Assembly (NCBI GenBank): GCA_005788585.1
Contig: SYBY01000006.1
Span: forward strand, 1 to 11,035
From: Actinomycetota bacterium
GTDB taxonomy: Bacteria; Actinomycetota; Thermoleophilia; Solirubrobacterales; Solirubrobacteraceae
DNA: 11,035 bases
Direction of reading: 5' to 3'
This document shows, one piece after another, positions 814 through 11,035 of the stretch. The position numbers and the translations under genes are program-made. Position 1 is the first letter of the stretch; each line of letters starts with the position of its first letter. The notes beneath the pieces were generated by a model. It was not told the origin of the DNA, searched no databases, and saw nothing but the letters and a program-made list of their open reading frames with translations.

Positions 814-820
814 GCCCCGG

Positions 821-826
821 ATTGTA
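821..826 (-). promoter_or_regulatory. -10 box of hrcA, leaderless-type promoter
   Basis: On the minus strand TACAAT (five of six bases as in TATAAT) ends 7 nt before the hrcA GTG at 813. A transcript starting the usual 6-7 nt after the -10 would begin at or next to the start codon, so the mRNA is probably leaderless. No convincing -35 hexamer is seen at 16-19 nt spacing. The box overlaps the candidate -10 of the divergent lasso operon. Confidence 0.5.
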
Positions 827-830
827 GGCT
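825..830 (+). promoter_or_regulatory. Candidate -10 box of the lasso operon
   Basis: TAGGCT fits TAnnnT and ends 9 nt before the ATG at 840. The same 9-nt spacing is seen before the hadA-like start at 9081 and the rmlC start at 9165, which strengthens an otherwise weak match. No clear -35 is present; that region would lie inside hrcA. If used, the operon mRNA would have almost no 5' leader, and RNA polymerase binding here would exclude binding at the hrcA promoter. Confidence 0.35.
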
Positions 831-839
831 GGCGCCCCG

Positions 840-1106
840 ATGCGGCACCAGATCGACGCCCACCAGGTCCACTGGCGCCGGGCGGGAGACGAACTGCTCG
901 TCCTGCACCTCCCGAGCTCCCGCTATCTCCAGCTCAATGCCACCGCCGGGGTGTTGTGGGATGCGGTCGTCGAAGGGGCGACGACCGAAGAGCTCGAAGC
1001 CCTCCTGCGCACCACCTACGAGATCGACGAGGCTCAGGCGAGCGCGGACGTGGACGCATTCCTGCGCTCCCTGCGCGACGGCGGGCTCCTGGCCACCTCG
1101 TCGTGA
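840..1106 (+). CDS. PqqD-family RiPP recognition element (RRE), stand-alone leader-peptide binding protein
   Basis: 88 residues, all PqqD-like: an N-terminal beta segment (HQVHWRRAGDELLVLHL), the SSRYLQLNATAGVLWDAVVEG hallmark (Y..LN..a..lWd.l..G) at about residues 27-47, then a helical part (TEELEALL, then ASADVDAFLRSLRDGGLL). In lasso peptide pathways such proteins (B1) bind the precursor leader and deliver it to the protease and cyclase. It is the first gene of the operon, and its TGA overlaps the GTG of the cyclase gene (4 nt shared, 1103-1106), so the two are translationally coupled. It is unusual because the leader protease further down carries its own fused RRE, making this a second copy. 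I infer that it serves the neighbouring short cyclase. Start: ATG at 840, behind a -10-like box with essentially no leader. The fold assignment is firm; the division of labour is inference. Confidence 0.88.
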   Translation: MRHQIDAHQVHWRRAGDELLVLHLPSSRYLQLNATAGVLWDAVVEGATTEELEALLRTTYEIDEAQASADVDAFLRSLRDGGLLATSS

Positions 1107-2305
1107 CGCGCGGCAAGCACGACGTCGGCTGGCTGCACGAGCGGTGGGATTCGCGGCACAACGCGTCGGGCCTGACGTGGCTCGAGCTGCTCACCGGCTG
1201 GACGACGGGCATCGACCTCCGCGCGCCGGACATCGACCTCGTCGACCCGCTGGCCGACCCGGTCGCGGCACTCGACGCCGCGCTCCTACGCTGTCTGAAG
1301 CGCCCGCCGGTCTACGTCGCGTTCTCGGGCGGCCGGGACTCGTCGGTCCTGCTGGCAGTCGCCACACGCGCCGCCCGACGTGAGGGTTTGCCTGACCCCG
1401 TCCCGCTGACGCAGCGCTTCTCCACAGTGCCGGAGACCGACGAGACGGCGTGGCAGGAGCTCGTGGTCCGCCATCTCGCTCTGAAGGAGTGGGAGCTGTT
1501 CGAGAGCGGCGCCGAGCTCGACCTCGTCGGCCCGATCGCGACCGAGGTTCTGCGCACCCACGGCCTGCGCTACCCGCCCGCGTCGCACGCGCACATCCCG
1601 ATGTACGAGCGTGCGGCGGGCGGCACCCTCGTCATGGGTGACGGCGGGGACCAGGTCTTCGCCGGTTGGCGGCGCTCACGCGTGGGAGATGTCCTCGTAC
1701 GCCGGCAGCGCCCTCGCGCGCGCGACCTCGTCACGCTCGCAAACGCCGCCGCTCCCGTCGCCCTGCGCGCCGTGGCGGAGACACGCCGTAGCCCGACCCC
1801 CGCCCCGTGGCTCGCCCCGTGGGTGCGCGCGGAGTGGGCACGCCATCAGGGCACCGCGCGCGCCCACGAACCGGCAACGTGGCCCGCGTTCCTGCGCTGG
1901 ACCCGCCGCGAGCGCCCCGCAGTCCTCATGCTGGAGACCTGGGAGCTACTGGCTGCCGAGCGCAACACTGCGCACGCCACCCCGTTCTGGGATCCCGTCT
2001 TCCTCCGGTCGCTCGGTACGTGGGGCGGACGGTTCGGCCGCGGATCGCGGACCCAGCTCATGCGGGCACTGTTCGGAGACCTGCTTCCGGACGAGATCCT
2101 GGCCCGCCGCTCGAAGGCACGGTTCTCCCGCGCCTATTTCGGAGAGCCGACCCGGCGCTTCGCGGAGAACTGGGACGGTGTGCTCCCGGGAACACAGGTA
2201 GTGGATCGCGACGCCCTCAGAGCACACTGGTTTTCCGAGCTTCCGTGGACCACGTCGGCGACGTTGCTACAGGCCGCATGGCTCGAACAACACACCAATA
2301 ACTAG
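1103..2305 (+). CDS. Lasso peptide macrolactam cyclase, asparagine-synthetase-like (C protein), short form
   Basis: 400 residues. It belongs to the asparagine synthetase B ATP-PPi family, used in lasso pathways to adenylate the ring Asp/Glu side chain so that the core N-terminus can attack it. Visible motifs: pyrophosphate-binding loop SGGRDS at residues 75-80 (AFSGGRDSSVLLAVA); GDGGDQVFAGW at about 179-189, the counterpart of GGDE.F.GY in asparagine synthetases; and a C-terminal helical part with RSKARFSRAYFGE. The SGG loop normally follows an N-terminal glutaminase-like domain of roughly 200 residues. Here only about 74 residues precede it and no catalytic Cys2 follows the initiator, so that domain is missing or reduced to a remnant. 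Start: the GTG at 1103 overlapping the RRE stop. The frame is open further upstream, but those codons lie across the RRE gene in another frame. The precursor gene follows after 86 nt. Family assignment is firm; the cyclase role comes from context. Confidence 0.9.
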   Translation: MTRGKHDVGWLHERWDSRHNASGLTWLELLTGWTTGIDLRAPDIDLVDPLADPVAALDAALLRCLKRPPVYVAFSGGRDSSVLLAVATRAARREGLPDPVPLTQRFSTVPETDETAWQELVVRHLALKEWELFESGAELDLVGPIATEVLRTHGLRYPPASHAHIPMYERAAGGTLVMGDGGDQVFAGWRRSRVGDVLVRRQRPRARDLVTLANAAAPVALRAVAETRRSPTPAPWLAPWVRAEWARHQGTARAHEPATWPAFLRWTRRERPAVLMLETWELLAAERNTAHATPFWDPVFLRSLGTWGGRFGRGSRTQLMRALFGDLLPDEILARRSKARFSRAYFGEPTRRFAENWDGVLPGTQVVDRDALRAHWFSELPWTTSATLLQAAWLEQHTNN

Positions 2306-2340
2306 ACCGCTTTCGATCGGTGGAATCGACCCGATGTTGG

Positions 2341-2349
2341 TGGTACGTT
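2341..2349 (+). promoter_or_regulatory. Candidate extended -10 promoter in front of the precursor gene
   Basis: In the 86-nt gap between the cyclase stop and the precursor GTG, TGG-TACGTT matches the extended -10 pattern TGn-TAnnnT. The sequence 17 nt upstream (TGGAAT, 2321-2326) is a poor -35. A start near 2356 would leave a leader of about 36 nt carrying the precursor's ribosome binding site. An internal promoter would let the precursor be made in excess of the enzymes, but the match is weak. Confidence 0.3.
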
Positions 2350-2380
2350 CGCTTGAGCATTTCGAGTCACTCAGGGGTTG

Positions 2381-2386
2381 AGGGAG
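2381..2386 (+). promoter_or_regulatory. Shine-Dalgarno site of the precursor gene
   Basis: AGGGAG lies 5 nt before the GTG at 2392. It is the clearest Shine-Dalgarno sequence in the operon, where most genes start by overlap with the one before. It decides the precursor start in favour of 2392 over the in-frame GTG at 2320, and fits a need for high precursor translation. Confidence 0.65.
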
Positions 2387-2391
2387 CGCAC

Positions 2392-2547
2392 GTGAGCACG
2401 AAGCCTGAATACACACCGCCCGTCGTCAAGGTCATCGGCGAGGTCTCGAAGGTCACCCAGTCCAAGCCGGGCATCTACTTCGACAGCCCCGGCGCCGAGC
2501 AGGGCGAGACGCGTGTCCCGCCCCCGGGCACGCCGGGTACCTCCTGA
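2392..2547 (+). CDS. Lasso peptide precursor (A protein)
   Basis: 51 residues from a GTG with a good ribosome binding site. The leader (1-23) has every position of the actinobacterial lasso leader pattern: Y7, P10, V12 (usually Leu), G16 and T22, with T22 at leader position -2. Cleavage is therefore predicted after Q23. The core is residues 24-51: SKPGIYFD (24-31), then SPGAEQGETRVPPPGTPGTS (32-51). S24 is core residue 1 and D31 core residue 8, so a Ser1-Asp8 macrolactam of eight residues is predicted. Glu at core position 13 is outside the known 7-9 range. Ile5, Tyr6 and Phe7 are the bulky residues of the ring; the tail of 20 residues is rich in Pro and Gly, with Arg41 (core 18) and Pro43-45 in its middle. 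The peptide ends in Thr-Ser, and the terminal Ser is the likely kinase target. No Cys is present, so this is a disulfide-free (class II-type) lasso. Ser at position 1 is rarer than Gly. It sits between the cyclase and protease genes. Not recognised as a named peptide. Confidence 0.88.
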   Translation: MSTKPEYTPPVVKVIGEVSKVTQSKPGIYFDSPGAEQGETRVPPPGTPGTS

Positions 2548-2554
2548 CACGACG

Positions 2555-3325
2555 GTGCCAGCCGACGTGCCGGGCTCGCCCACCGAGGGGCCCGGGCGTC
2601 ACATCGTGTCCCGTGAGATCGGGGACACCACCGTGTTGCTCAACCTCGCCACGGGCACGTATCTCGCGGTCTCGGGCTCCGGAGGCGAGCTGTGGCGGCT
2701 GTACGCGACGCAGGGCTACGACGGGGCGGTTGACGCTGCCAGTAGCCGCTTCGGCGTCCCGGCCGCGCAGATCCGCACGGACCTCGATCGCCTCCTGCAC
2801 GAGGTCACGACGTTGCGCGCACGCAGCGATCTGCAGCGCGTCCACCGCCCTCCGCTGCCTTGGCGACGCGCGCTGATCGCCGACCGCCGTGACGTCTGCG
2901 CCGTCGCGCGTACCGCCGCGCTCGCGACCATCGTCGAAGTCGGCTTGCGTGTCCTCCCGCTCCCTCGCCTCGCCGCGGCGCTCGGCGTGCGTCTTGCGGC
3001 GGAGCCCGAACCCGCACGGGCCACCCCGTCGTCCACCGTCGCGGACCTGACGGCCCGTGAGCAGAGTGACCTCCTGGCCACCGAGCGGGTCTTCCGGTAC
3101 TGGCCATTTGACGATACGTGCCTGCGCCGCGCGCTCGTCATCGGCCGCCAGTTGCGCGCTCGCGGCGCCGTGCTGCATCTCGGCGTCGCCGACAGCGACG
3201 CGGTGGAAGCAGGCGGCCGCGCGCACGAAGGAACGATCGTCGCCCACGCCTGGGTCGAGGCAGGCGACGTGACCCTGTTGTCGCTCCCCGGCTACCACCG
3301 TCTCGTCACCGCGGCGCATGACTGA
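2555..3325 (+). CDS. Lasso leader protease with fused RRE (B1-B2 fusion)
   Basis: 256 residues. Residues about 15-91 are a PqqD-like RRE (RHIVSREIGDTTVLLNLATG, then TYLAVSGSGGELWRLYATQG) that binds the leader. Residues about 105-256 are the B2 protease of the bacterial transglutaminase-like fold: a hydrophobic helical lead-in (VEVGLRVLPLPRLAAALGV), catalytic Cys189 in RYWPFDDTCLRRALVIGRQL and catalytic His231 in VAHAWVEAGD; the third residue may be Asp238 but is not certain. It should cut the precursor after the residue that follows T22. Start choice: the GTG at 2555 lies 7 nt after the precursor stop. An earlier in-frame GTG at 2513 would overlap the precursor by 35 nt and give 270 residues; in that stretch several codons (GCA, GTA, CCT, CCT) end in A or T, unlike the rest of the gene, so I prefer 2555, though AGGG lies 8 nt before 2513. 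It overlaps the kinase gene by 8 nt. Function is secure; the start is moderate. Confidence 0.9.
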   Translation: MPADVPGSPTEGPGRHIVSREIGDTTVLLNLATGTYLAVSGSGGELWRLYATQGYDGAVDAASSRFGVPAAQIRTDLDRLLHEVTTLRARSDLQRVHRPPLPWRRALIADRRDVCAVARTAALATIVEVGLRVLPLPRLAAALGVRLAAEPEPARATPSSTVADLTAREQSDLLATERVFRYWPFDDTCLRRALVIGRQLRARGAVLHLGVADSDAVEAGGRAHEGTIVAHAWVEAGDVTLLSLPGYHRLVTAAHD

Positions 3326-4295
3326 GCCCGTACCGTGCTTCAACGCCCACGGTCTGCACATCAGCGGCCTGCTTCCGTTGTCGGCCCCAACGTCGGTCGG
3401 GCCGCCCGACCTGAGCGTCACCCTGGGCTCGTACCGGGAGATCCCATGGCAGCGGCCGGCGCCGGAGGTCATCGCCGAGCTGATCGGCCCCGAAGGCTGG
3501 GCGCGCTACTCGTTCTGCGCGCGCGAGGGTGGGGGCGTCACCGCGCGGGTCTACAGCCTGGCGGACTTCGAGCTGAATGCCGACCGCAGCGAGGTCGTCG
3601 CGCACCCGGCGACCGATGTCGATAAGGAGATCGTCGCCATCCTCCTGGCGGGAACCGTCGCGGCGTTCGTGCTCATGGAGCGCGGGGCCTGCGTCCTGCA
3701 CGCGAGTGCCGTCGAGCTCAGCCCGGGCCACGCCATCGCGTTTGCCGGGTTCTCTGCCCGCGGGAAGACCACGTCGGCCGCCTTGCTGTGCGCCTCCGGA
3801 CGCGCGCTGGTGACCGACGATGTGCTCGTGGTCGACATGGACGACGGCGTCCCGCGCTGCGGGCCAGGAGGCACCGAGCTGCGACTGCGCCCCCAGCAGA
3901 TCCATCTCGCCGACGCGTTCGGCGACCGTGCCATCAGGCGCGCGACGGCCGACGACCGCATCGCCGTCCGCCCGTCCGTCGAGCCCTGCCCGGCGCCGGA
4001 GCTCGCAGCGGTGGTGGTGCCGAACCCCACCCGCCGGAGCACGCGCGTCCGGGTGGAAAGGCTCGATGTCGCCACCGCGACGTCCGAACTCATCGCCGCA
4101 CCGCGCATTGAGGGGTGGCGGCGCCCGGAGGACATCCGCCGCGTCTTCGATCAGTCGGTCGATCTCGCCGCACGGGTGCCCGTCCTGCGCGCAGAGATCC
4201 CGTGGGGTCCCCCATTCCCGCCCCGCATCGCCGATGCGCTGAGCACCGCCATCGAGGCAGAGCTGGCCGGCGCCACCGCGGGCTCGCGCCGATGA
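3318..4295 (+). CDS. HPr-kinase-like lasso peptide kinase
   Basis: 325 residues. The C-terminal half resembles HPr kinase/phosphorylase: LHASAVEL with His128, the P-loop GFSARGKTT (Gly144 to Thr152), and LVTDDVLVV with Asp167-Asp168 as the Walker-B-like acidic pair. The N-terminal 120 residues (YSFCAREGGG, YSLADFELNAD) match the divergent front part seen in peptide-tailoring kinases rather than the N-terminal domain of true HprK. In paeninodin-type clusters such kinases (PadeK, ThcoK) phosphorylate the side chain of the precursor's C-terminal Ser. The precursor here ends in Ser, which supports the same role. A housekeeping HprK is unlikely given the location within the operon. The ATG overlaps the protease stop by 8 nt, and its own TGA overlaps the ATG of the ABC gene by 4 nt. 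Confidence 0.87.
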   Translation: MTEPVPCFNAHGLHISGLLPLSAPTSVGPPDLSVTLGSYREIPWQRPAPEVIAELIGPEGWARYSFCAREGGGVTARVYSLADFELNADRSEVVAHPATDVDKEIVAILLAGTVAAFVLMERGACVLHASAVELSPGHAIAFAGFSARGKTTSAALLCASGRALVTDDVLVVDMDDGVPRCGPGGTELRLRPQQIHLADAFGDRAIRRATADDRIAVRPSVEPCPAPELAAVVVPNPTRRSTRVRVERLDVATATSELIAAPRIEGWRRPEDIRRVFDQSVDLAARVPVLRAEIPWGPPFPPRIADALSTAIEAELAGATAGSRR

Positions 4296-6136
4296 CGCAG
4301 CCCGCACCGTCGTTCGACCGCCTGGCGTACCTGCAGTCCAGCGTCACGCAGCCACGCTCGTTCAAGCGCCTGCCCGAGCTCGCACATCGCGCGGTCATCC
4401 TCGCCCACCGCGCGAGCCCGCGTCTGTTCTGGCTGACGACGGTGCTGCAGCTGGCGACCGCAGCGATGCTGGGGTTACAGGTGCTCCTCGGCGGCTTGGC
4501 GATCGAAGCCGTGCTCGAGCAACAGGACGGCGGGAGCCTCGGTCCGGTCCTCGCACCCCTCATCGGTCTGGCGGCGGTGACGGCGATCAGTGGTCTGGCC
4601 GGTAGCGCCCAGGTCCAGCTGCAGCGACTTCTGGGCGAGGAGGTCCAGCTCCTCACGTGGACACGGATCCTCGACGTCACGACGAGCGTCCGATTGGAGA
4701 CGTTCGAGAGCCCGGAGTTCTTCGACGCGCTGCAGCGCGTCCGGGCCAACGCGGTGCTGCGCCCCCTGACGATGTCCCAAGGACTCGTTCAGCTGTTCGG
4801 CGGCGCCGTGAGCGTGGCCGGGCTGATCGTCGCGCTGACAGTCATCCACCCCGCGCTGATCATCGTCTTCCTGCTGGGCGGCGTGCCGTTGTGGCTGCTG
4901 TCGCGCACGACCGGCCGGCTGGAGTTCCGCTTCCGCGCGGGCCAGACACCGCTGCTGCGCTTGCGGGCGTACCTCACCGAGCTGTTGTCGGGACGCAATG
5001 AGGCCAAGGAGGTTCGTGCGTTCAATCTGGGCCCGGTCCTGTACGACCGCTGGCGCAGCAACTACGACGAGTACCTCGACGACTACCGCCGCCATGTCCG
5101 CCGCCGCCTCGGGCTCGCCACCGTCGGAGCCGCGGTGACCACGGTGGTCATGAGCGTCTCGGTCGGCCTGCTGGTGTGGTTCGTCGTAGACGGCACAGTG
5201 GCGCTGGCGAGCGCCGGTGCGGCACTGATCGCAATCCGCCTGCTCGCCGGGCGGCTGCAGCAGACGTTCAACGGTGTGACCGACCTGTTCGAGTCCGCGC
5301 TGTTCCTCAACGACTTCGAGGAGTTCACCGACCGCGCACCCGCACCCGAACAACACGATCCGACCGCACCGGTGGTGGCGCCGTTCGACGAGTTGCAGGT
5401 CGAGCATGTCTCGTTCCGGTACCCGGGTACCGACCGCATCGCGCTGCGCGACGTGTCGTTGACCCTGCGCGCGGGTGAAGTGGTGGCGCTCGTCGGTGAG
5501 AACGGGTCGGGCAAGACGACGCTGGCCAAGCTCCTGGGCCACGTCTTCACCCCGACCGAGGGTCGGATCCTGTGGGACGGCGTCGACGCGGAAACGCTTG
5601 ACGCCGACCGCCTGCGCACGCATGTCGGCGTGATCTTTCAGGACTTCGTGCGCTTCCAGCTCTCGGCGCGAGACAACATCGGCTTCGGCCGCGCCGATCT
5701 CCTGGGTGACGACGACGCGATCGTGGAAGCCGCGCGGCGAGGCGGGGCGCACGACCTGCTGTCCGCCCTGCCCGAGGGGTACGACACCAACCTGGGCAAG
5801 GAGTACCTGGGTGGTCAGGACCTGTCACTGGGTCAGTGGCAGCGGATCGCGCTGTCACGGGCGTTCTTTCGCGACGCGAGCTTCTTGGTGCTCGACGAGC
5901 CGACAGCGTCACTGGACGCTCGTTCCGAGCACGAGCTGTTCGAGCATGTCCGGCGGCTGGCGGACGATCGCTGCCTGCTGCTGATCTCTCACCGGTTCTC
6001 GACCGTGAAAGAGGCGGACCGCATCTACGTCCTGCACGAGGGCGAGCTCATCGAGGAGGGCTCGCACGACGAGCTCGTGGCCCAGGGCGGCCACTACGCA
6101 GAGATGTTCGACCTGCAGGCGCGCGCGTACCGCTGA
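4292..6136 (+). CDS. ABC exporter half, membrane domain fused to ATPase (lasso D protein)
   Basis: 614 residues. Six hydrophobic segments are seen at about 45-73, 84-106, 163-183, 186-206, 274-298 and 303-322, followed by an ATP-binding domain: Walker A GENGSGKTT at 402-410, Q-loop Gln450 (FQDF), signature LSLGQWQR at 511-518, Walker B FLVLDEPTAS with Asp535 and Glu536, and H-loop His567 (SHRFST). All catalytic residues are intact, so a working homodimeric exporter is expected. In lasso clusters this protein exports the mature peptide and gives self-immunity. There is no N-terminal C39 peptidase, consistent with leader removal by the B2 protease. Start: the ATG at 4292 overlaps the kinase stop (ATGA). 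The frame is open upstream to 4115, but that stretch lies within the kinase gene and would precede the first membrane span with Arg-rich shadow sequence. Confidence 0.94.
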   Translation: MTQPAPSFDRLAYLQSSVTQPRSFKRLPELAHRAVILAHRASPRLFWLTTVLQLATAAMLGLQVLLGGLAIEAVLEQQDGGSLGPVLAPLIGLAAVTAISGLAGSAQVQLQRLLGEEVQLLTWTRILDVTTSVRLETFESPEFFDALQRVRANAVLRPLTMSQGLVQLFGGAVSVAGLIVALTVIHPALIIVFLLGGVPLWLLSRTTGRLEFRFRAGQTPLLRLRAYLTELLSGRNEAKEVRAFNLGPVLYDRWRSNYDEYLDDYRRHVRRRLGLATVGAAVTTVVMSVSVGLLVWFVVDGTVALASAGAALIAIRLLAGRLQQTFNGVTDLFESALFLNDFEEFTDRAPAPEQHDPTAPVVAPFDELQVEHVSFRYPGTDRIALRDVSLTLRAGEVVALVGENGSGKTTLAKLLGHVFTPTEGRILWDGVDAETLDADRLRTHVGVIFQDFVRFQLSARDNIGFGRADLLGDDDAIVEAARRGGAHDLLSALPEGYDTNLGKEYLGGQDLSLGQWQRIALSRAFFRDASFLVLDEPTASLDARSEHELFEHVRRLADDRCLLLISHRFSTVKEADRIYVLHEGELIEEGSHDELVAQGGHYAEMFDLQARAYR

Positions 6137-6140
6137 TCGA

Positions 6141-7385
6141 ATGGGCCGGCTGCGGATGAGCGACGAGGAGCGTCTGCTGCGCTGCCTCATCGGCGTGGCA
6201 CCGCGGCGCGCGCGCGAAGAGCCGCTCGTGCGTGAGCTGTTCGCGCGCTCCGACCCAGCGCTCCTGCGCGAGACGTTCGAGCGCGACCGGCTGGTCCCGC
6301 TCGCTGGGGGACGGCTTGTGGCGATCGTCGGGGACATGGCCCCGGAATGGCTGCGCACCTGGGTCGACCAGCACACCGCTGCGGCACAGGCATGGGGCGA
6401 GCGCCATGAGCTGATCGAGCTTCTGGTGCTCGGAGCGCTCAAGCGCGCGGGCGTCGCCGCCATGCCGCTGAAGGGCAGCCGCGTGGCGCGCGACGTTCAC
6501 GGCTCGCTTGCGCTGCGCAGTGCCGGGGATATCGACGTGCTCGTCGCCGAGGAGGACCTCGCGCGAGGCGTGTCCGCGCTCGTCGCCGAAGGGTGGTCTC
6601 CCCCCGGCGACCCGGTGGGCAAGGACGGCCTCCCGATGATCCACTTCGCACTGGACCACAAGGGTGGCCTCCCGCCGGTGGAGCTGCATTGGCGCGTGCA
6701 CTTCCATGAGCGCACGTGGGCGCGAGGCGTGCTGGAACGGTCGGACACCGGACCGGGCGAGCGCGAGCCCTCAGCCGGCGACCTCCTCGCCCTTCTGCTC
6801 CTGCTGTACGCCCGGGAGGGGTGCAACAACCTGCGGCTGGCCGCCGACGTGGCCGGCTGGTGGGACCGTTTCGGTGATGCGCCGATGGCCGGCGCGCTGG
6901 CGTCCGTCGACGCCGTGCCCTCACTACGGCCAGCGTTCGTCACCGCAGCGGTCGCGGCCGAGCGTGCCGTCGGACTGCCCAGTGCACGGGTGCTGGGCCT
7001 GCATGTTCGCTCCCCAGGGTGTTCGCGCCTGGGCGTGCAGTTCGCGACGCTGCCGCTGGCGGCAACCGACGAGCAACGGAAGGCCGAGCGACGACTGGCG
7101 GACCACTTGCTGGCACCGGCATCTGAGCTCGTACCCTCGCTGCGCCGCCAGGCGATCCCCTCCCCCGCCGTTGCGGTCTACCTTCGCCCGCACCTCGCCG
7201 ACGATCGAAGGCGGCTGGCGGCGGACGTGCTCGTCAGCGCGCTGATGGTTCCCACGCGGGCGGTCATCGCTGGGCTCCGACTGCGCGGCTCGGCCGTGGG
7301 GACGCAGCTCGAGGTCGGACTCGACCGCCGGCGCGCGGAACTACGCGGCGGCGCGTTCGGTGGCCGGTCGGGCCCAAGCGACTGA
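6141..7385 (+). CDS. Nucleotidyltransferase-family protein, putative lasso tail-tailoring enzyme
   Basis: 414 residues. It resembles the uncharacterised nucleotidyltransferase family common at the ends of lasso clusters: AMPLKGSRVARDVHGS followed by LRSAGDIDVLVAEEDL, where Asp130 and Asp132 form the D-x-D metal site of the polymerase-beta-type fold, then VELHWRVHFHERTW (an ELHW..H motif typical of the family), and a helical C-terminal half. In the pseudomycoidin pathway a related protein acts on the phosphorylated peptide tail (hexose addition was reported, as I recall), so a similar secondary modification after the kinase is plausible. The donor and product cannot be read from sequence. Start: the ATG at 6141, 4 nt after the ABC stop; a second ATG at 6156 (MSDEERLLRC) would remove five residues, and neither has a clear ribosome binding site. 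Last gene of the operon. Family fairly sure; function inferred. Confidence 0.82.
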   Translation: MGRLRMSDEERLLRCLIGVAPRRAREEPLVRELFARSDPALLRETFERDRLVPLAGGRLVAIVGDMAPEWLRTWVDQHTAAAQAWGERHELIELLVLGALKRAGVAAMPLKGSRVARDVHGSLALRSAGDIDVLVAEEDLARGVSALVAEGWSPPGDPVGKDGLPMIHFALDHKGGLPPVELHWRVHFHERTWARGVLERSDTGPGEREPSAGDLLALLLLLYAREGCNNLRLAADVAGWWDRFGDAPMAGALASVDAVPSLRPAFVTAAVAAERAVGLPSARVLGLHVRSPGCSRLGVQFATLPLAATDEQRKAERRLADHLLAPASELVPSLRRQAIPSPAVAVYLRPHLADDRRRLAADVLVSALMVPTRAVIAGLRLRGSAVGTQLEVGLDRRRAELRGGAFGGRSGPSD

Positions 7386-7387
7386 CG

Positions 7388-7675
7388 TCACCGCTGACGA
7401 CTCTGCGTGCTGGGGGCGTCCGCGCCGTCGGCGACGTCGCCTCCATCGGCCCGCGAGAATCGCCCCGTCGGCCGAAGCACGGGCTCGGATCGCACCACGT
7501 GCGGGATGGGAGCGTGCACCGGGGCTTTGCCCCGGCGCACGAGGACCGGCCCGTACCGCCCGCCGGCGATGCGCAGCACGAACGCCCCCCTCGCGGCGGA
7601 ATACCGAAAGGCCGGCCGCAACAGGCGCAGGGCCAAGGGGCCGACAGCACGTCTACGACGAGGCTGGTCACGCAT
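7388..7675 (-). CDS. Hypothetical small basic protein (uncertain gene)
   Basis: 95 residues if started at the ATG at 7675. I do not recognise a function. The central part (RPAFRYSAARGAFVLRIAG, then GRYGPVLVRRG) looks like ordinary protein sequence with hydrophobic and aromatic residues, unlike the Arg/Ala/Pro-rich shadows in other frames here. The rest is rich in Arg and Gly. The frame stays open far upstream to 7999, but that extension runs through the cupin gene. Its stop lies 2 nt from the stop of the nucleotidyltransferase gene, so the two would converge almost without a gap. No ribosome binding site is evident. A strong hairpin lies inside the frame (7513-7541), which argues somewhat against it. 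It could be the last gene of the minus-strand dehydratase-cupin operon, 185 nt after the cupin; or the stretch may be noncoding. Confidence 0.42.
   Translation of the reverse strand: MRDQPRRRRAVGPLALRLLRPAFRYSAARGAFVLRIAGGRYGPVLVRRGKAPVHAPIPHVVRSEPVLRPTGRFSRADGGDVADGADAPSTQSRQR
7513..7541. terminator. Strong GC hairpin, possible bidirectional terminator
   Basis: Arms 7513-7525 and 7529-7541 pair over 13 positions with one mismatch (A7518 opposite C7536) around a TTT loop; the inner part is CCGGGGC-TTT-GCCCCGG. It lies between the converging lasso operon and the minus-strand operon, where a terminator is expected. There is no T-run on either side, so it would be a hairpin-only type, and the stem also lies within the possible small gene on the minus strand. 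Confidence 0.4.
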
Positions 7676-7860
7676 GGTCTTCGTCCACCTGATTGGCAGT
7701 AGGGGCGGAAGGCTGGTCTCTGCGCGCTGGACGGTGTCCGTCAGCACGCGGTCGCGTCCATCATGCCCTAGTCGCGCGCGGACGTGGGGCCAATCTGGCA
7801 GCGCGTCGAGGGACCAGCGGTCCAGACGCCCCGGTGACCCGGACCACGGGTCGACTGGAG
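7676..7860. other. Spacer without a recognised gene
   Basis: This stretch lies between the cupin stop and the possible small minus-strand gene. Both strands are open in parts, but translations are Arg/Pro/Ala-rich and match nothing I know. No clear promoter, RNA gene or repeat is seen. If the small gene at 7388-7675 is not real, the noncoding stretch is 475 nt (7386-7860), the longest in the window and the likely right border of the lasso operon. Confidence 0.5.
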
Positions 7861-8241
7861 CTACGGCGCGTTCGTGCCCTCCCGGCCGTACCCGTCCTGC
7901 AGCCTGACCACGTCCTCGAGGTGCGGGGTCGACACCTCGAGCACGTCCGCATCCTCGATGGCTTCGATCGTGTGCACCTCGCCGGGCCGGTTGCGCCATG
8001 TCTCGCCCGGCCCCATCTCGGTCGCCTCGAGGTTGTCGAGCGTGGTGCCCTTGTGCAGGTACACCTGCCCCTTCAAGACGTAGCTCGTTTCGTCTTTGAT
8101 CTCGTGGTACTGCACCGACAGCTTATGGCCGGCATTGACGTGCAGGATCTTGCCGACGTACTGGTCGGTCCACGCCCACCAGATCTCGTACCCCCAGGGC
8201 TTCTTGACGTGGACCGGGAGCTGATCGGGACGGATGTCCAC
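7861..8241 (-). CDS. Cupin protein of the type II phosphomannose isomerase kind
   Basis: 126 residues, one cupin barrel. Motifs: KKPWGYEIWW near the start (the KPWG(W/Y)E signature of mannose-6-phosphate isomerase cupins), AGHKLSVQYHEIKDETSYVL giving the His/Gln/His/Glu metal site, and PGEVHTIEAIEDADVLEVST with the last His ligand, followed by DVVRLQDGYGRE. Full type II enzymes are often fused to a GDP-mannose pyrophosphorylase; this is the isolated barrel, so it may be an isomerase or a sugar-phosphate-binding relative. Start: the GTG at 8241, 3 nt after the stop of the HadB-like gene, so it is the third gene of a tight operon. Nearby dTDP-rhamnose genes make a role in sugar metabolism plausible, but the substrate is not shown. 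Confidence 0.85.
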   Translation of the reverse strand: MDIRPDQLPVHVKKPWGYEIWWAWTDQYVGKILHVNAGHKLSVQYHEIKDETSYVLKGQVYLHKGTTLDNLEATEMGPGETWRNRPGEVHTIEAIEDADVLEVSTPHLEDVVRLQDGYGREGTNAP

Positions 8242-8244
8242 GGC

Positions 8245-8637
8245 TCAACTCAGAGCGATATCGGCTTCCGCATTGCGCACGATCTGGCTGCCGTTCTGCT
8301 CGGCGGCCGTTTCGACCCGTGCCACACCGTCAGTCACCTCAACGACCTTGGAGGTCACGACGATCTCCTGTTCCGGCAGGCCCATGCCGCGGAACTGGAC
8401 CTTCAGCCGCTTCAGTGACTCGGGTCCGCCACCTGCATCGGTTTGCGCGCGCGCGACCTGAGCCATCGTGTAGAGGCCGTGGAGGATCTTGCCGGGCAGG
8501 CCGACGCTCTTGGCGAACTCCTCATCGATGTGAATCGGGTTGAAGTCCCCCGACGCGCCCGCGTACCGCACGGTGAGAAACCGGTCGGGCGTGACGCGCA
8601 GCTCGGGGAGCTCCTGCCCCTCGGTGAACTCGGCCAT
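8245..8637 (-). CDS. MaoC-like (R)-specific acyl dehydratase, catalytic (HadB-like) subunit
   Basis: 130 residues, a single hot-dog domain. The hydratase 2 motif is complete: YAGASGDFNPIHIDEEFAKS, with Asp31, Asn33 and His36, the same positions as the catalytic Asp31-His36 pair of Aeromonas PhaJ, followed by GLPGKILHGLYTMAQVAR. It should dehydrate (R)-3-hydroxyacyl-ACP or hydrate enoyl-CoA, in the cytosol. It starts 3 nt after the stop of the HadA-like gene (ATG at 8637), as for partners of a heterodimer such as mycobacterial HadAB. The pathway (fatty acid elongation or another acyl chain) cannot be decided from the sequence. Confidence 0.9.
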   Translation of the reverse strand: MAEFTEGQELPELRVTPDRFLTVRYAGASGDFNPIHIDEEFAKSVGLPGKILHGLYTMAQVARAQTDAGGGPESLKRLKVQFRGMGLPEQEIVVTSKVVEVTDGVARVETAAEQNGSQIVRNAEADIALS

Positions 8638-9164: not shown

Positions 9165-9734
9165 GTGCGCGTAAGTGAAACCGACCTGCCCGGCGTCCTG
9201 GTTCTGGAGCCTGCCGTCCACGGCGACCATCGAGGGTTCTTCCTCGAGAGCTACCGCGATGACGTCGCACGCTCGGCAGGGATGGAGACCGCCTGGGTCC
9301 AGGACAACCACAGCCGATCCAGGCGGGGCATCGTCCGCGGCATGCACTTCGCGCTCGGCGCCGGCCAGACGAAGCTCGTCCGCTGTGTCCGTGGCGCGAT
9401 CCTCGACGTCGTCGTCGACATCCGGCGCGGATCACCGACCTACGGACAGTGGCGCAGCTTCGAACTCGACGATGCCACCCACCGCCAGCTCTACATCCCG
9501 ATCGGCTTCGCGCACGGCTTCTGCGTGCTCTCCGATGTCGCCGATGTCGCGTACAAGTGCTCCAACTACTACGACCCGGCGGTGGAGCGGGGCTTCCGGT
9601 TCGACGACCCGGAGGTCGCCATCACCTGGCCGGACCTCACCCTGGACGTCTCCGAGCGAGATCGCACCGCTCCGCTCCTGAGCGACATCGCAGACGGTCT
9701 CCCCTTCGAATTCGCGAGCGCCCACGATGTCTGA
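9165..9734 (+). CDS. rmlC: dTDP-4-dehydrorhamnose 3,5-epimerase
   Basis: 189 residues, near the usual 180-200. It epimerises C3 and C5 of dTDP-4-keto-6-deoxyglucose in dTDP-L-rhamnose synthesis. Motifs: DHRGFFLESYR (the D.RG.F.E.. opening), QDNHSRSRRGIVRGMHFALG with catalytic His61 (family RG(L/M)H), KLVRCVRGAILDVVVDIRRG, YIPIGFAHGFCVLSD, and YKCSNYYDPAVERGFRFDDP with Tyr130 as the likely acid. Start: the GTG at 9165 just after the -10 box; the resulting N-terminus is normal for the family. Its stop overlaps rmlA by 8 nt. The precise role (cell-wall or surface rhamnose) is inferred. Confidence 0.95.
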   Translation: MRVSETDLPGVLVLEPAVHGDHRGFFLESYRDDVARSAGMETAWVQDNHSRSRRGIVRGMHFALGAGQTKLVRCVRGAILDVVVDIRRGSPTYGQWRSFELDDATHRQLYIPIGFAHGFCVLSDVADVAYKCSNYYDPAVERGFRFDDPEVAITWPDLTLDVSERDRTAPLLSDIADGLPFEFASAHDV

Positions 9735-10803
9735 CCTGAAGGGTTTGATTCTCTCCGGTGGGAAGGGCACGCGGCTGCGGCCGATCACGCACACCAGCGC
9801 GAAGCAGTTGGTGCCGGTGGCGAACAAGCCGGTGTTGTTCTTCGGGATCGAGGCGATGGCCGATGCGGGGATCACCGAGGTGGGGATCATCATCGCGCCG
9901 GAGACCGGCGGTGAGATCCGTGAGGCGTGCGGTGACGGGTCGCAGTTCGGGGTGGCGATTACGTACATCGAGCAGGACGAACCGTTGGGGTTGGCGCATG
10001 CGGTGCTGACCGCCGAGCCGTTCCTCGGTGACTCGCCGTTTGTGATGTATCTGGGGGACAACCTGCTGCAGGGCGGCATCCGCGACCTCGTCACCGCGTT
10101 CGAGGAAGGGTCACCGGACGCGTTGATCTTGTTGACCGAGGTCGATGACCCGCAGAGCTTCGGGATCGCGGCGCTCGACGACGCCGGCCAGGTGGTCAAG
10201 CTCGTCGAGAAGCCCAAGGACCCCCCGTCGAACCTCGCGCTCGTCGGCGTGTACCTGTTCACCCCGCTCATCCACGAGGCCGCGCGCGCGATCACGCCGT
10301 CGGCGCGCGGGGAGCTGGAGATCACCGACGCGATCCAGTGGCTGGTCGACACCGGCCGCCGCGTCGACCCGCACGTCGTCGTCGGGTGGTGGAAGGACAC
10401 CGGCCGCCTGGCCGACATGCTCGAAGCCAACCGCCTCATCCTCGACGTCATCGAACCGCGGATCGAGGGCGAGTTGATCGACAGCACCGTCGAAGGACGC
10501 GTCATCGTCGAACCCGGCGCGGTGTTGACCAACAGCACCGTCCGCGGCCCCGCCGTTATCGGAGCGGGTGCGGAGATCACTGACGCCTACGTTGGTCCCT
10601 ACAGCGCAATCGGCAAGGGAGTCATCGTTCGGTCCGCAGAGATCGAGCACAGCATCCTGCTGACCGGCAGCAAGGTCCTCGATCTCGACGGCCGTATGGA
10701 ATCCAGCCTTCTCGGCCGCAACGTGACGATTTCTCGCGGCCCCAGCCAGCCGCGCGCGTACCGGTTCATGATCGGCGACAACTCCGACATCGGCATCCTG
10801 TGA
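9727..10803 (+). CDS. rmlA: Glucose-1-phosphate thymidylyltransferase, long form
   Basis: 358 residues. It makes dTDP-glucose from dTTP and glucose-1-phosphate, the first step to dTDP-rhamnose. The N-terminal nucleotidyltransferase domain (about 1-235) shows the GGKGTRLRP loop at 11-19, the KPVLFFGIEAM region, YLGDN with metal-binding Asp111, and VEKPKDPPSNLALVGVYLF. Residues about 245-358 form a left-handed beta-helix-like tail (IDSTVEGRVIVEPGAVLTNS, then TVRGPAVIGAGAEITDAYVG). The short RmlA/RffH enzymes are about 290 residues; the 355-residue form with this tail is the StrD-like type found in many actinobacteria. The ATG at 9727 overlaps the rmlC stop, so translation is coupled. Codon use changes inside the gene: TTG, GTG and GGG dominate the first 150 codons, and CTC, GTC and GGC follow after about 10,180. 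Confidence 0.95.
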   Translation: MSDLKGLILSGGKGTRLRPITHTSAKQLVPVANKPVLFFGIEAMADAGITEVGIIIAPETGGEIREACGDGSQFGVAITYIEQDEPLGLAHAVLTAEPFLGDSPFVMYLGDNLLQGGIRDLVTAFEEGSPDALILLTEVDDPQSFGIAALDDAGQVVKLVEKPKDPPSNLALVGVYLFTPLIHEAARAITPSARGELEITDAIQWLVDTGRRVDPHVVVGWWKDTGRLADMLEANRLILDVIEPRIEGELIDSTVEGRVIVEPGAVLTNSTVRGPAVIGAGAEITDAYVGPYSAIGKGVIVRSAEIEHSILLTGSKVLDLDGRMESSLLGRNVTISRGPSQPRAYRFMIGDNSDIGIL

Positions 10804-10879
10804 CACCGCTCAGGCTGCGCCCTCGGATGCCACTGCAAGAACTCGCTGGCGCTCCTGCTTCCGGGCGTGGTGATCGCTC

Positions 10880-11035
10880 GTGAAGCTGCTTGTGACCGGT
10901 GCGGCGGGGATGCTCGGACAGCGCGTGGTCGCTGACGCGACCGCCCGCGGGTGGGACGTGGTCGGGATCGATCTGCCCGACGCCGATCTGACCGATGAGC
11001 ACGCGGCGAGGGAGGTCATCGCCCGTCATGCCCCG
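10880..11035 (+). CDS. rmlD: dTDP-4-dehydrorhamnose reductase or related NAD(P)-dependent sugar epimerase/reductase (start only)
   Basis: 52 codons are present before the right edge. They begin with the Rossmann-fold dinucleotide site KLLVTGAAGMLGQRVV (T-G-A-x-G-M-L-G), then a short strand ending DVVGIDLPDADLTDE and a helix. TGAxGMLG and the DLTD turn are typical of RmlD, which reduces the 4-keto group to give dTDP-L-rhamnose. The short-form SDR start and the rmlC-rmlA context support this over RmlB, whose site reads GxxGFIG. The GTG at 10880 is fixed by an in-frame TGA at 10871-10873. It lies 76 nt after rmlA, a wider gap than between rmlC and rmlA; no strong promoter or terminator is seen there. 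Confidence 0.82.
   Translation, partial: MKLLVTGAAGMLGQRVVADATARGWDVVGIDLPDADLTDEHAAREVIARHAP

What the first reader, a model, noticed from the sequence alone, without database searches (positions are those of the whole stretch)
2392..2547. New lasso precursor: predicted 28-residue core, Ser1-Asp8 ring, Pro-rich tail ending in Ser
All leader positions (Y7, P10, G16, T22) fall at the exact spacing known for lasso leaders, with Val12 where Leu is usual. This places the cut after Q23 and gives Ser at core position 1 and Asp at position 8. Ser1 is uncommon, and a 20-residue tail with PPPGTPGTS is long and rigid for a lasso. Ile, Tyr and Phe at ring positions 5-7 directly before Asp8 give an unusually hydrophobic ring segment.
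Basis: partly seen in the sequence, partly recalled or inferred. Interest (0 to 1): 0.85.

Follow-up and report, generated by a model that had tools for sequence, protein, structure and literature searches.

The report
Phosphorylated lasso peptide gene cluster
A small gene here very probably encodes a knotted "lasso" peptide whose last serine is phosphorylated and perhaps sugar-decorated; the peptide is an ordinary new member of a known kind, but the enzyme that closes the knot belongs to a shortened lineage that deserves a test.

Summary
A 51-aa GTG-started ORF at 2392-2547 has the lasso leader signature (Y7, P10, V12, G16, T22) and a 28-aa core with Ser1 and Asp8, the only acid at positions 7-9. 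It lies in an intact same-strand operon, 840-7385: stand-alone RRE, cyclase C, precursor A, RRE-protease fusion B, HprK-like kinase K, ABC exporter D, nucleotidyltransferase N. Three homologous precursors were found; one is already annotated as lasso in a Solirubrobacteraceae MAG. The core is more conserved than the leader.

They make the conserved C-terminal Ser the likely phosphorylation/glycosylation site. Among 30 precursors beside related kinases (window included), Ser1 (3), 28-aa cores (4), leader Val (6) and C-terminal Ser (17) recur, so the "unusual" features are not rare.

The machinery is less ordinary. C lacks the roughly 200-residue amidotransferase-like N-terminal part and groups (support 100/100) with short cyclases, all from Actinomycetota in the loci held. 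The cluster has two RREs and sits between hrcA and maoC, neighbours in 4 of 8 relatives. Lasso topology, phosphorylation and glycosylation are inferred, not shown.

The parts
840..1106 (+). Stand-alone RRE (PqqD-like, B1-type), 88 aa; its stop overlaps the start of C
   Evidence: Pfam PqqD 56.2 bits (cut-off 23.4); sequence relatives with solved structures: 9x90 chain B, TbiB1 5v1u, TfuB1 6jx3
1103..2305 (+). Lasso cyclase C, 400 aa, Asn_synthase domain only (FSGGRDSS loop after 73 aa); start GTG 1103 inferred
   Evidence: Pfam Asn_synthase 59 bits (cut-off 21), no GATase hit; frames and N-terminal lengths; N-part profile finds nothing in the window; model mean pLDDT 85; fold matches; clade
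2392..2547 (+). Lasso precursor A: leader 1-23, core 24-51
2392..2460 (+). Leader peptide (23 residues, cut site after Gln23 inferred)
   Evidence: motif and alignment
2461..2544 (+). Core SKPGIYFDSPGAEQGETRVPPPGTPGTS; Ser1-Asp8 ring and Ser28 phosphosite inferred
2552..3325 (+). B: RRE fused to transglutaminase-like leader peptidase (start GTG 2552 inferred)
   Evidence: PqqD 35.1 and Transglut_core3 34.7 bits, both above cut-off; NCBIfam lasso_biosyn_B2 50.2 bits (cut-off 33); model matches TbiB1 with Foldseek probability 1.00, best E 1.4e-3; Cys and His invariant in 13 aligned rows
3318..4295 (+). K: HprK-like kinase, 325 aa, with His128, Lys150, Asp167, Asp168
   Evidence: 701 homologs at E <= 1e-3 (best 120 listed); the four residues invariant in 31 rows chosen from the list; NCBIfam HprK_rel_B only 28.7 bits (cut-off 200)
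4292..6136 (+). D: ABC exporter, 614 aa
   Evidence: ABC_tran 107.7 bits (cut-off 25)
6141..7385 (+). N: NTP_transf_5 nucleotidyltransferase, 414 aa (PsmN-like role inferred)
   Evidence: PF14907 74 bits (cut-off 31.2); no NCBIfam hit

Best explanation
The operon makes a phosphorylated, probably glycosylated lasso peptide. Inferred steps: the stand-alone RRE binds the YTPPVV part of the leader and presents the linear precursor. [quoted passage not shown] B (its own RRE plus a transglutaminase-like Cys protease) cuts after Thr-Gln. The short cyclase C adenylates the Asp8 side chain and the Ser1 amine attacks it, closing an 8-residue macrolactam around the tail. N adds a hexose or similar group to the phosphoserine, and D exports the product. 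Shown here: the ORF, motif, operon, domain content, conservation of the core and of the terminal Ser, and the clade of C. Inferred from characterised relatives: every chemical step.
For: Leader motif with tail and acid not reproduced in 300 shuffles. Same-strand operon with overlapping stops and starts. RRE, Asn_synthase, lasso B2, ABC and NTP_transf_5 above curated cut-offs. Four precursors keep Asp8, the leader Thr and a terminal Ser; P0004 has two extra residues yet still ends in Ser. Core 23-24 of 26 identical pairwise against 11-17 of 19 for the leader. 17 of 30 kinase-linked precursors end in Ser (binomial about 1e-11 at an assumed 8%, although the rows are related and so not independent). 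Of the 10 precursors in the nine other loci that have both a short cyclase and a listed precursor (L002, L004, L005 with two, L009, L010, L011, L012, L017, L019), 8 end in Ser and 2 in Ser-Arg. K has the His-Lys-Asp-Asp residues named for lasso kinases (motif from passages). [quoted passage not shown] Asn33 and Asp70 of RRE1 align, through PbaB1 (9x90), with LppB N33 and D70, which contact the Pro kink and the Tyr of YxxP.
Against: No product is known. The leader model score is below cut-off and K is below every NCBIfam kinase cut-off. The precursor family was found only in one named MAG and in contigs without a named organism; the genome scan with the precursors found none, nor did 232 genomes of one order (no positive control). 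In Bradymonas and in LPPs the kinase acts on core Ser3, not the C-terminus; here position 3 is Pro, but Ser1, Ser9, Thr17, Thr24 and Thr27 remain possible sites, and 13 of 30 kinase-linked precursors do not end in Ser. The role of N rests on one characterised relative that I could not compare by sequence, and the review leaves open whether PsmN itself is the sugar transferase. C lacks a part that the comparison cyclases have.
Confidence: 0.72

Rival explanations
1. A lasso peptide is made, but the kinase modifies another hydroxyl (Ser9 or a tail Thr) and the C-terminal Ser is incidental, in the manner of the Bsf system.
For: BsfK phosphorylates core Ser3 and LppK acts on S3; 13 of 30 kinase-linked precursors do not end in Ser.
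Against: Position 3 is Pro in all four family members; the terminal Ser is kept even when the tail changes length; 17 of 30 kinase-linked precursors end in Ser.
Confidence: 0.15
2. The product is not threaded: the short cyclase makes a branched macrolactam or another amide, or the system yields a linear phosphopeptide like the LPP family.
For: LPP clusters share RRE, HprK-like kinase, NTP transferase and exporter but lack a cyclase; C here lacks the amidotransferase-like part of the comparison cyclases.
Against: An Asn_synthase enzyme with an intact SGGRDSS loop lies next to A; 28 of 30 kinase-linked precursors have an acid at position 8 or 9 (L006 and L023 have none at 7-9); short cyclases sit beside precursors with the standard lasso leader motif.
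Confidence: 0.1
3. A decayed or silent cluster with no function.
For: Rare in the reference genomes searched; the short cyclase of one relative, L078, is broken by an in-frame TAG.
Against: All seven window ORFs are open and closely spaced or overlapping; the core is more conserved than the leader among relatives.
Confidence: 0.05

Closest known systems
Paeninodin (Paenibacillus dendritiformis; kinase PadeK)
   Same: Kinase gene in the cluster, core ending in Ser, kinase with His-Lys-Asp-Asp residues (review passages).
   Different: Paeninodin-type leaders use Trp rather than Tyr (passage); here B is fused with an extra RRE, the cyclase is short, and the core is 28 aa with Ser1-Asp8. I did not compare sequences with PadeA or PadeK.
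Pseudomycoidin (Bacillus pseudomycoides; PsmK, PsmN)
   Same: Kinase plus nucleotidyltransferase in the lasso cluster; hexose on the phosphoserine reported (review passages).
   Different: N is between B2 and D in such Firmicutes clusters, last here; N was assigned by Pfam family only, not compared with PsmN.
Bsf cluster (Bradymonas sediminis)
   Same: A, B1, B2, C, D, K and N all present (passages).
   Different: BsfA ends in Asp and is phosphorylated on Ser3; its penultimate leader residue is Ile; B1 and B2 are separate.
LPP family (linear phosphate-modified peptides, Bacillota)
   Same: Discrete RRE, HprK-like kinase, NTP transferase, MsbA-like exporter (passages).
   Different: No cyclase; a signal-peptidase-like protease in place of B2.
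Solirubrobacteraceae MAG locus (P0002, P0007, P0126; one contig inferred from the equal contig length 111,980)
   Same: Same precursor family, kinase 67% and RRE-protease fusion 64% identical; precursor and B annotated as lasso by a source.
   Different: Core starts with Thr. No experimental work came up in my searches.

Membership tests
Lasso peptide | Precursor with YxxPx[L/V/I]...G.....T leader and an acid at core 7-9 | tested here: met
   the NCBIfam leader model is only sub-threshold
Lasso peptide | RRE and transglutaminase-like B2 peptidase | tested here: met
Lasso peptide | Asn-synthetase-like cyclase C | tested here: met
   Asn_synthase above cut-off; the N-terminal amidotransferase-like part is absent; NCBIfam lasso cyclase model only 14.1 bits against 525
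Lasso peptide | Macrolactam threaded by the tail | not testable with these tools
   needs expression, MS/MS and NMR
Kinase-modified (paeninodin-type) lasso peptides | HprK-like kinase with His-Lys-Asp-Asp residues in the cluster | tested here: met
   31 rows; motif taken from passages; no curated kinase model passed
Kinase-modified (paeninodin-type) lasso peptides | Core ends in Ser | tested here: met
   4 of 4 family members
Kinase-modified (paeninodin-type) lasso peptides | Phosphate on that Ser | not testable with these tools
   needs MS/MS
Phosphoglycosylated (pseudomycoidin-type) lasso peptides | PsmN-like nucleotidyltransferase in the cluster | tested here: inconclusive
   PF14907 above cut-off; not compared with PsmN
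LPP linear phosphate-modified peptides | No macrolactam cyclase; signal-peptidase-like protease | tested here: not met
   C is present and B is transglutaminase-like

The most novel reading that the evidence does not exclude
The cluster belongs to an actinobacterial lineage whose lasso cyclase has no amidotransferase-like half and works as a bare adenylating synthetase domain, with a stand-alone RRE (here encoded just upstream and overlapping C) helping to hold the substrate. In this family a second RRE, fused to the protease, then takes over the same leader: a two-RRE hand-off, RRE1 for kinase and cyclase, RRE-B for cleavage. If so, C would be the smallest lasso-threading enzyme that I know of.
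Probability: 0.3. Interest if true: 0.65.

Novelty: new variant of a known kind. Interest (0 to 1): 0.45.

Why it matters
As a peptide this is one more lasso member; the machinery is the point. [quoted passage not shown] passages). A natural 400-aa cyclase without the N-terminal part would be a smaller target and would show which half does the threading. The two-RRE layout allows a natural test of whether kinase, protease and cyclase share one leader-bound carrier. The strongly conserved core (Ser or Thr first, Ser last) suggests a conserved target or signal role (inference).

Tried and rejected
Loss of the protease's third catalytic residue: the three close fused B proteins have Leu at His+11 where P0128-P0131 have Asp. 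I rejected this as an anomaly because only 7 of 27 HAW-type matches in the loci have Asp there and many others have Ile, Leu or Val (at least two of the 27 are chance frames and L053 repeats L023).

Relatives: the precursor scan of viral contigs found none and the precursor alignment found none in genome contigs; the kinase alignment then gave 39 loci. The order-level search with the precursors gave 0 of 232, without a positive control.

dTDP-rhamnose genes (9165 on) as source of a sugar for N: rmlC, rmlA and rmlD follow on the + strand, but three opposite-strand genes lie between, and tblastn found no rmlC in the held flanks of rmlA in 7 of 7 relatives. No support either way.

PADLOC: no hit for 7 proteins. 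Solved structures by sequence: none for C or K at E <= 0.001. Matches of RRE-B to SAKe designs are sums of weak repeat hits, each i-Evalue above 50, and were ignored. Foldseek on B gave no match at E <= 0.001; the only convincing ones are RREs, and the protease half had no convincing match.

Literature: searches returned no papers; two papers each, with one mention of each term; two searches listed papers unrelated to lasso cyclases; one search listed lasso papers, none of whose titles or shown abstract starts is about two-RRE lasso clusters. So truncated lasso cyclases, two-RRE clusters and Solirubrobacter/Thermoleophilia lasso peptides were not found in open-licence PMC by these searches; that does not show they are unpublished. 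I saw passages only, no whole text, of PMC8498205, PMC10368454, PMC9266682, PMC13352647, PMC13381572, PMC7533575 and PMC11420955. The paeninodin and pseudomycoidin papers are not held and are cited through reviews.

Full report
Observation. The strict lasso-leader pattern with a 12-32 residue tail and an acid at core 7-9 occurs once in the window and in 0 of 300 dinucleotide shuffles. A search of 5.77 billion proteins gave three hits (P0002-P0004) of nearly the same length and core. One is named by a source as a lasso RiPP leader protein of a Solirubrobacteraceae MAG. Pairwise, the first 26 core residues agree at 23-24 positions and the 19 leader residues before the core at 11-17. P5, Y7, P10, V12, G16, T22, Q23 and core Asp8 are invariant, and all four end in Ser; core residue 1 is Ser, Thr, Ser, Ser.

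Operon. On the same strand lie a PqqD-type RRE (840-1106), an Asn_synthase cyclase (1103-2305), A, a PqqD-Transglut_core3 fusion B (2552-3325), an HprK-like kinase K (3318-4295), an ABC exporter D (4292-6136) and an NTP_transf_5 protein N (6141-7385). RRE1 matches 9x90 chain B, TbiB1 and TfuB1 by sequence; all three are named in titles or passages as complexes with leaders. Asn33 and Asp70 of RRE1 align with PbaB1 G42 and Q79, the positions of LppB N33 and D70, which contact the Pro kink and the Tyr of a YxxP leader (alignment; residue roles). RRE-B has Ser at the Asn position by my own eye alignment, so its binding may differ (inference). The model of B has mean pLDDT 75, and its RRE part matches TbiB1 with probability 1.00 and best E 1.4e-3.

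Tailoring. His128, Lys150, Asp167 and Asp168 of K are invariant in 31 aligned rows, the window's own included, which I chose from the 120 listed of 701 homologs. Passages in two papers name this residue set in lasso kinases; passages in two reviews say that PadeK acts on the C-terminal Ser of the precursor and that PsmN is responsible for hexose on the phosphoserine. I therefore infer Ser28 as the modified residue. In one search I listed distinct precursors with the strict motif within 8 kb of a kinase relative: 30 precursors in 28 of 47 loci with a K match below 1e-6 (many loci are short or cut, so absence there says little). L036 was dropped for lack of a K match, and repeated sequences were counted once. 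With the window's own row included, 17 end in Ser, 3 have Ser1, 4 have 28-residue cores, 6 have Val at the Leu position, 13 have an acid at position 8, and 2 (L006, L023) have no acid at 7-9. The set was gathered through kinases and does not describe lasso peptides at large. A match to the window's N by phmmer (E <= 0.01) was seen in L007, L026, L031, L032 and L037, not in the loci with short cyclases, so a kinase plus N with a short cyclase was seen only in the window.

Cyclase. From the GTG that overlaps the RRE1 stop, 73 residues precede the SGGRDSS loop; upstream starts in the frame (122, 181, 185) would run into the RRE1 gene. The FSGGRDS type occurs in 12 rows (window, L002, L004, L005, L009, L010, L011, L012, L014, L015, L017, L019). 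In 6 of the 12 (L004, L005, L010, L011, L012, L017) an in-frame stop caps the part before the loop at 55-87 residues; in the other 6 the frame is open further (157-206) but has nearer starts. Asn-synthase-like frames of other kinase loci that are not cut by the locus end mostly have 225-335 residues before the loop, counted from the farthest start. In 3 of 4 of these given to Pfam (L026, L031, L033) GATase_6/7 is found; the fourth, L001, has the length but no GATase hit. A profile of 15 such N-terminal parts finds no ORF of 55 aa or more in the held sequence of 11 of the 12 short-type loci; the one hit, in L017, is GlmS. A tree of the synthetase part (11 short; 17 full, which may include Asn synthetases unrelated to lasso peptides, such as L006; L015 left out because it repeats L014) puts the short ones on one side of a branch with support 100/100; the 10 named short ones are all from Actinomycetota.

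To test the bias from kinase-based collection I searched 396 genomes of the phylum with the short-cyclase alignment. Three matched at E <= 1e-25: G001 (one of the alignment's sources), G124 (two copies) and G160; the tool scored at most four candidates per genome. Outside G001 the three places all have a kinase relative within about 1.5 kb (E 2e-16, 7e-45 and, weakly, 3e-9 at L078). The L078 cyclase is broken by a TAG and has FSGGVDS, and the parts before the loop in the three are at most 94, 78 and 84 residues by in-frame stops. C is modelled with mean pLDDT 85 and its six best PDB matches (TsnB9, beta-lactam synthetase, human asparagine synthetase, carbapenam synthetase) have E 2e-7 to 7e-6, TM 0.37-0.54 over the query and rmsd 7.6-9.8, so the fold is of that superfamily but not close to any of them. 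Absence of the N-terminal part thus looks like a lineage trait; what that part does in threading is unknown to me.

Two RREs. B fused to its own RRE was found in the window, P0126 and P0127, and more distantly in P0132; the search scored only the 7999 best candidates. P0126 and P0127 belong with the precursors P0002 and P0004 by equal contig length (inference). I could not look for a stand-alone RRE on those contigs, so the combination of both RREs is shown for the window only.

Host and place. Of 399 genomes of the class of the best one (G127), 10 have a kinase relative at E <= 1e-10, the best 42% identical. The flanks show an insertion: maoC2, maoC1 and hrcA are adjacent on one strand in 4 of 8 relatives (gap maoC1-hrcA about 30-250 bases); in a fifth, 2.6 kb of other genes lie between; the other three are uninformative (different contigs, or no strong maoC2 match). 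In the window the lasso operon and a cupin gene lie at this junction.

Verdict. A new member of the kinase-modified lasso peptides with variant machinery.

Noticed in passing
window 814-8244: The lasso operon plus a cupin gene lies between hrcA (1-813, -) and maoC1 (8245-8637, -), which are neighbours in 4 of 8 relatives; in a fifth (L072) other genes fill the same junction.
   Followed up: yes
window 7861-8241 (-): Small cupin gene (Cupin_2 and MannoseP_isomer, both below Pfam cut-off) beside the operon; no match in 8 relatives, without a positive control. It may belong to the inserted segment.
   Followed up: partly
window 9165-11035 (+): rmlC, rmlA and the start of rmlD (dTDP-rhamnose genes) follow; rmlC was not found in the held flanks of rmlA in 7 of 7 relatives.
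   Followed up: partly
L005, L033, L077: L005 and L033 hold two lasso precursors near one kinase; L077 holds two short cyclases about 4.5 kb apart, each with a kinase relative.
   Followed up: no
L004 8127 and L012 8153: Cores end in Ser-Arg instead of Ser beside a close kinase relative; a C-terminal trimming step or a shifted kinase site would be worth a look.
   Followed up: no
L006 9280: Precursor-like ORF with a standard leader but a core rich in Gly and Lys without any acid at positions 7-9, beside kinase and B2 relatives.
   Followed up: no
L033 3679 and 3929: Two cyanobacterial precursors beside a kinase relative have a VPxGTPxGP stretch after Asp8, loosely like the PPPGTPGTS tail of the window; probably chance.
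   Followed up: no
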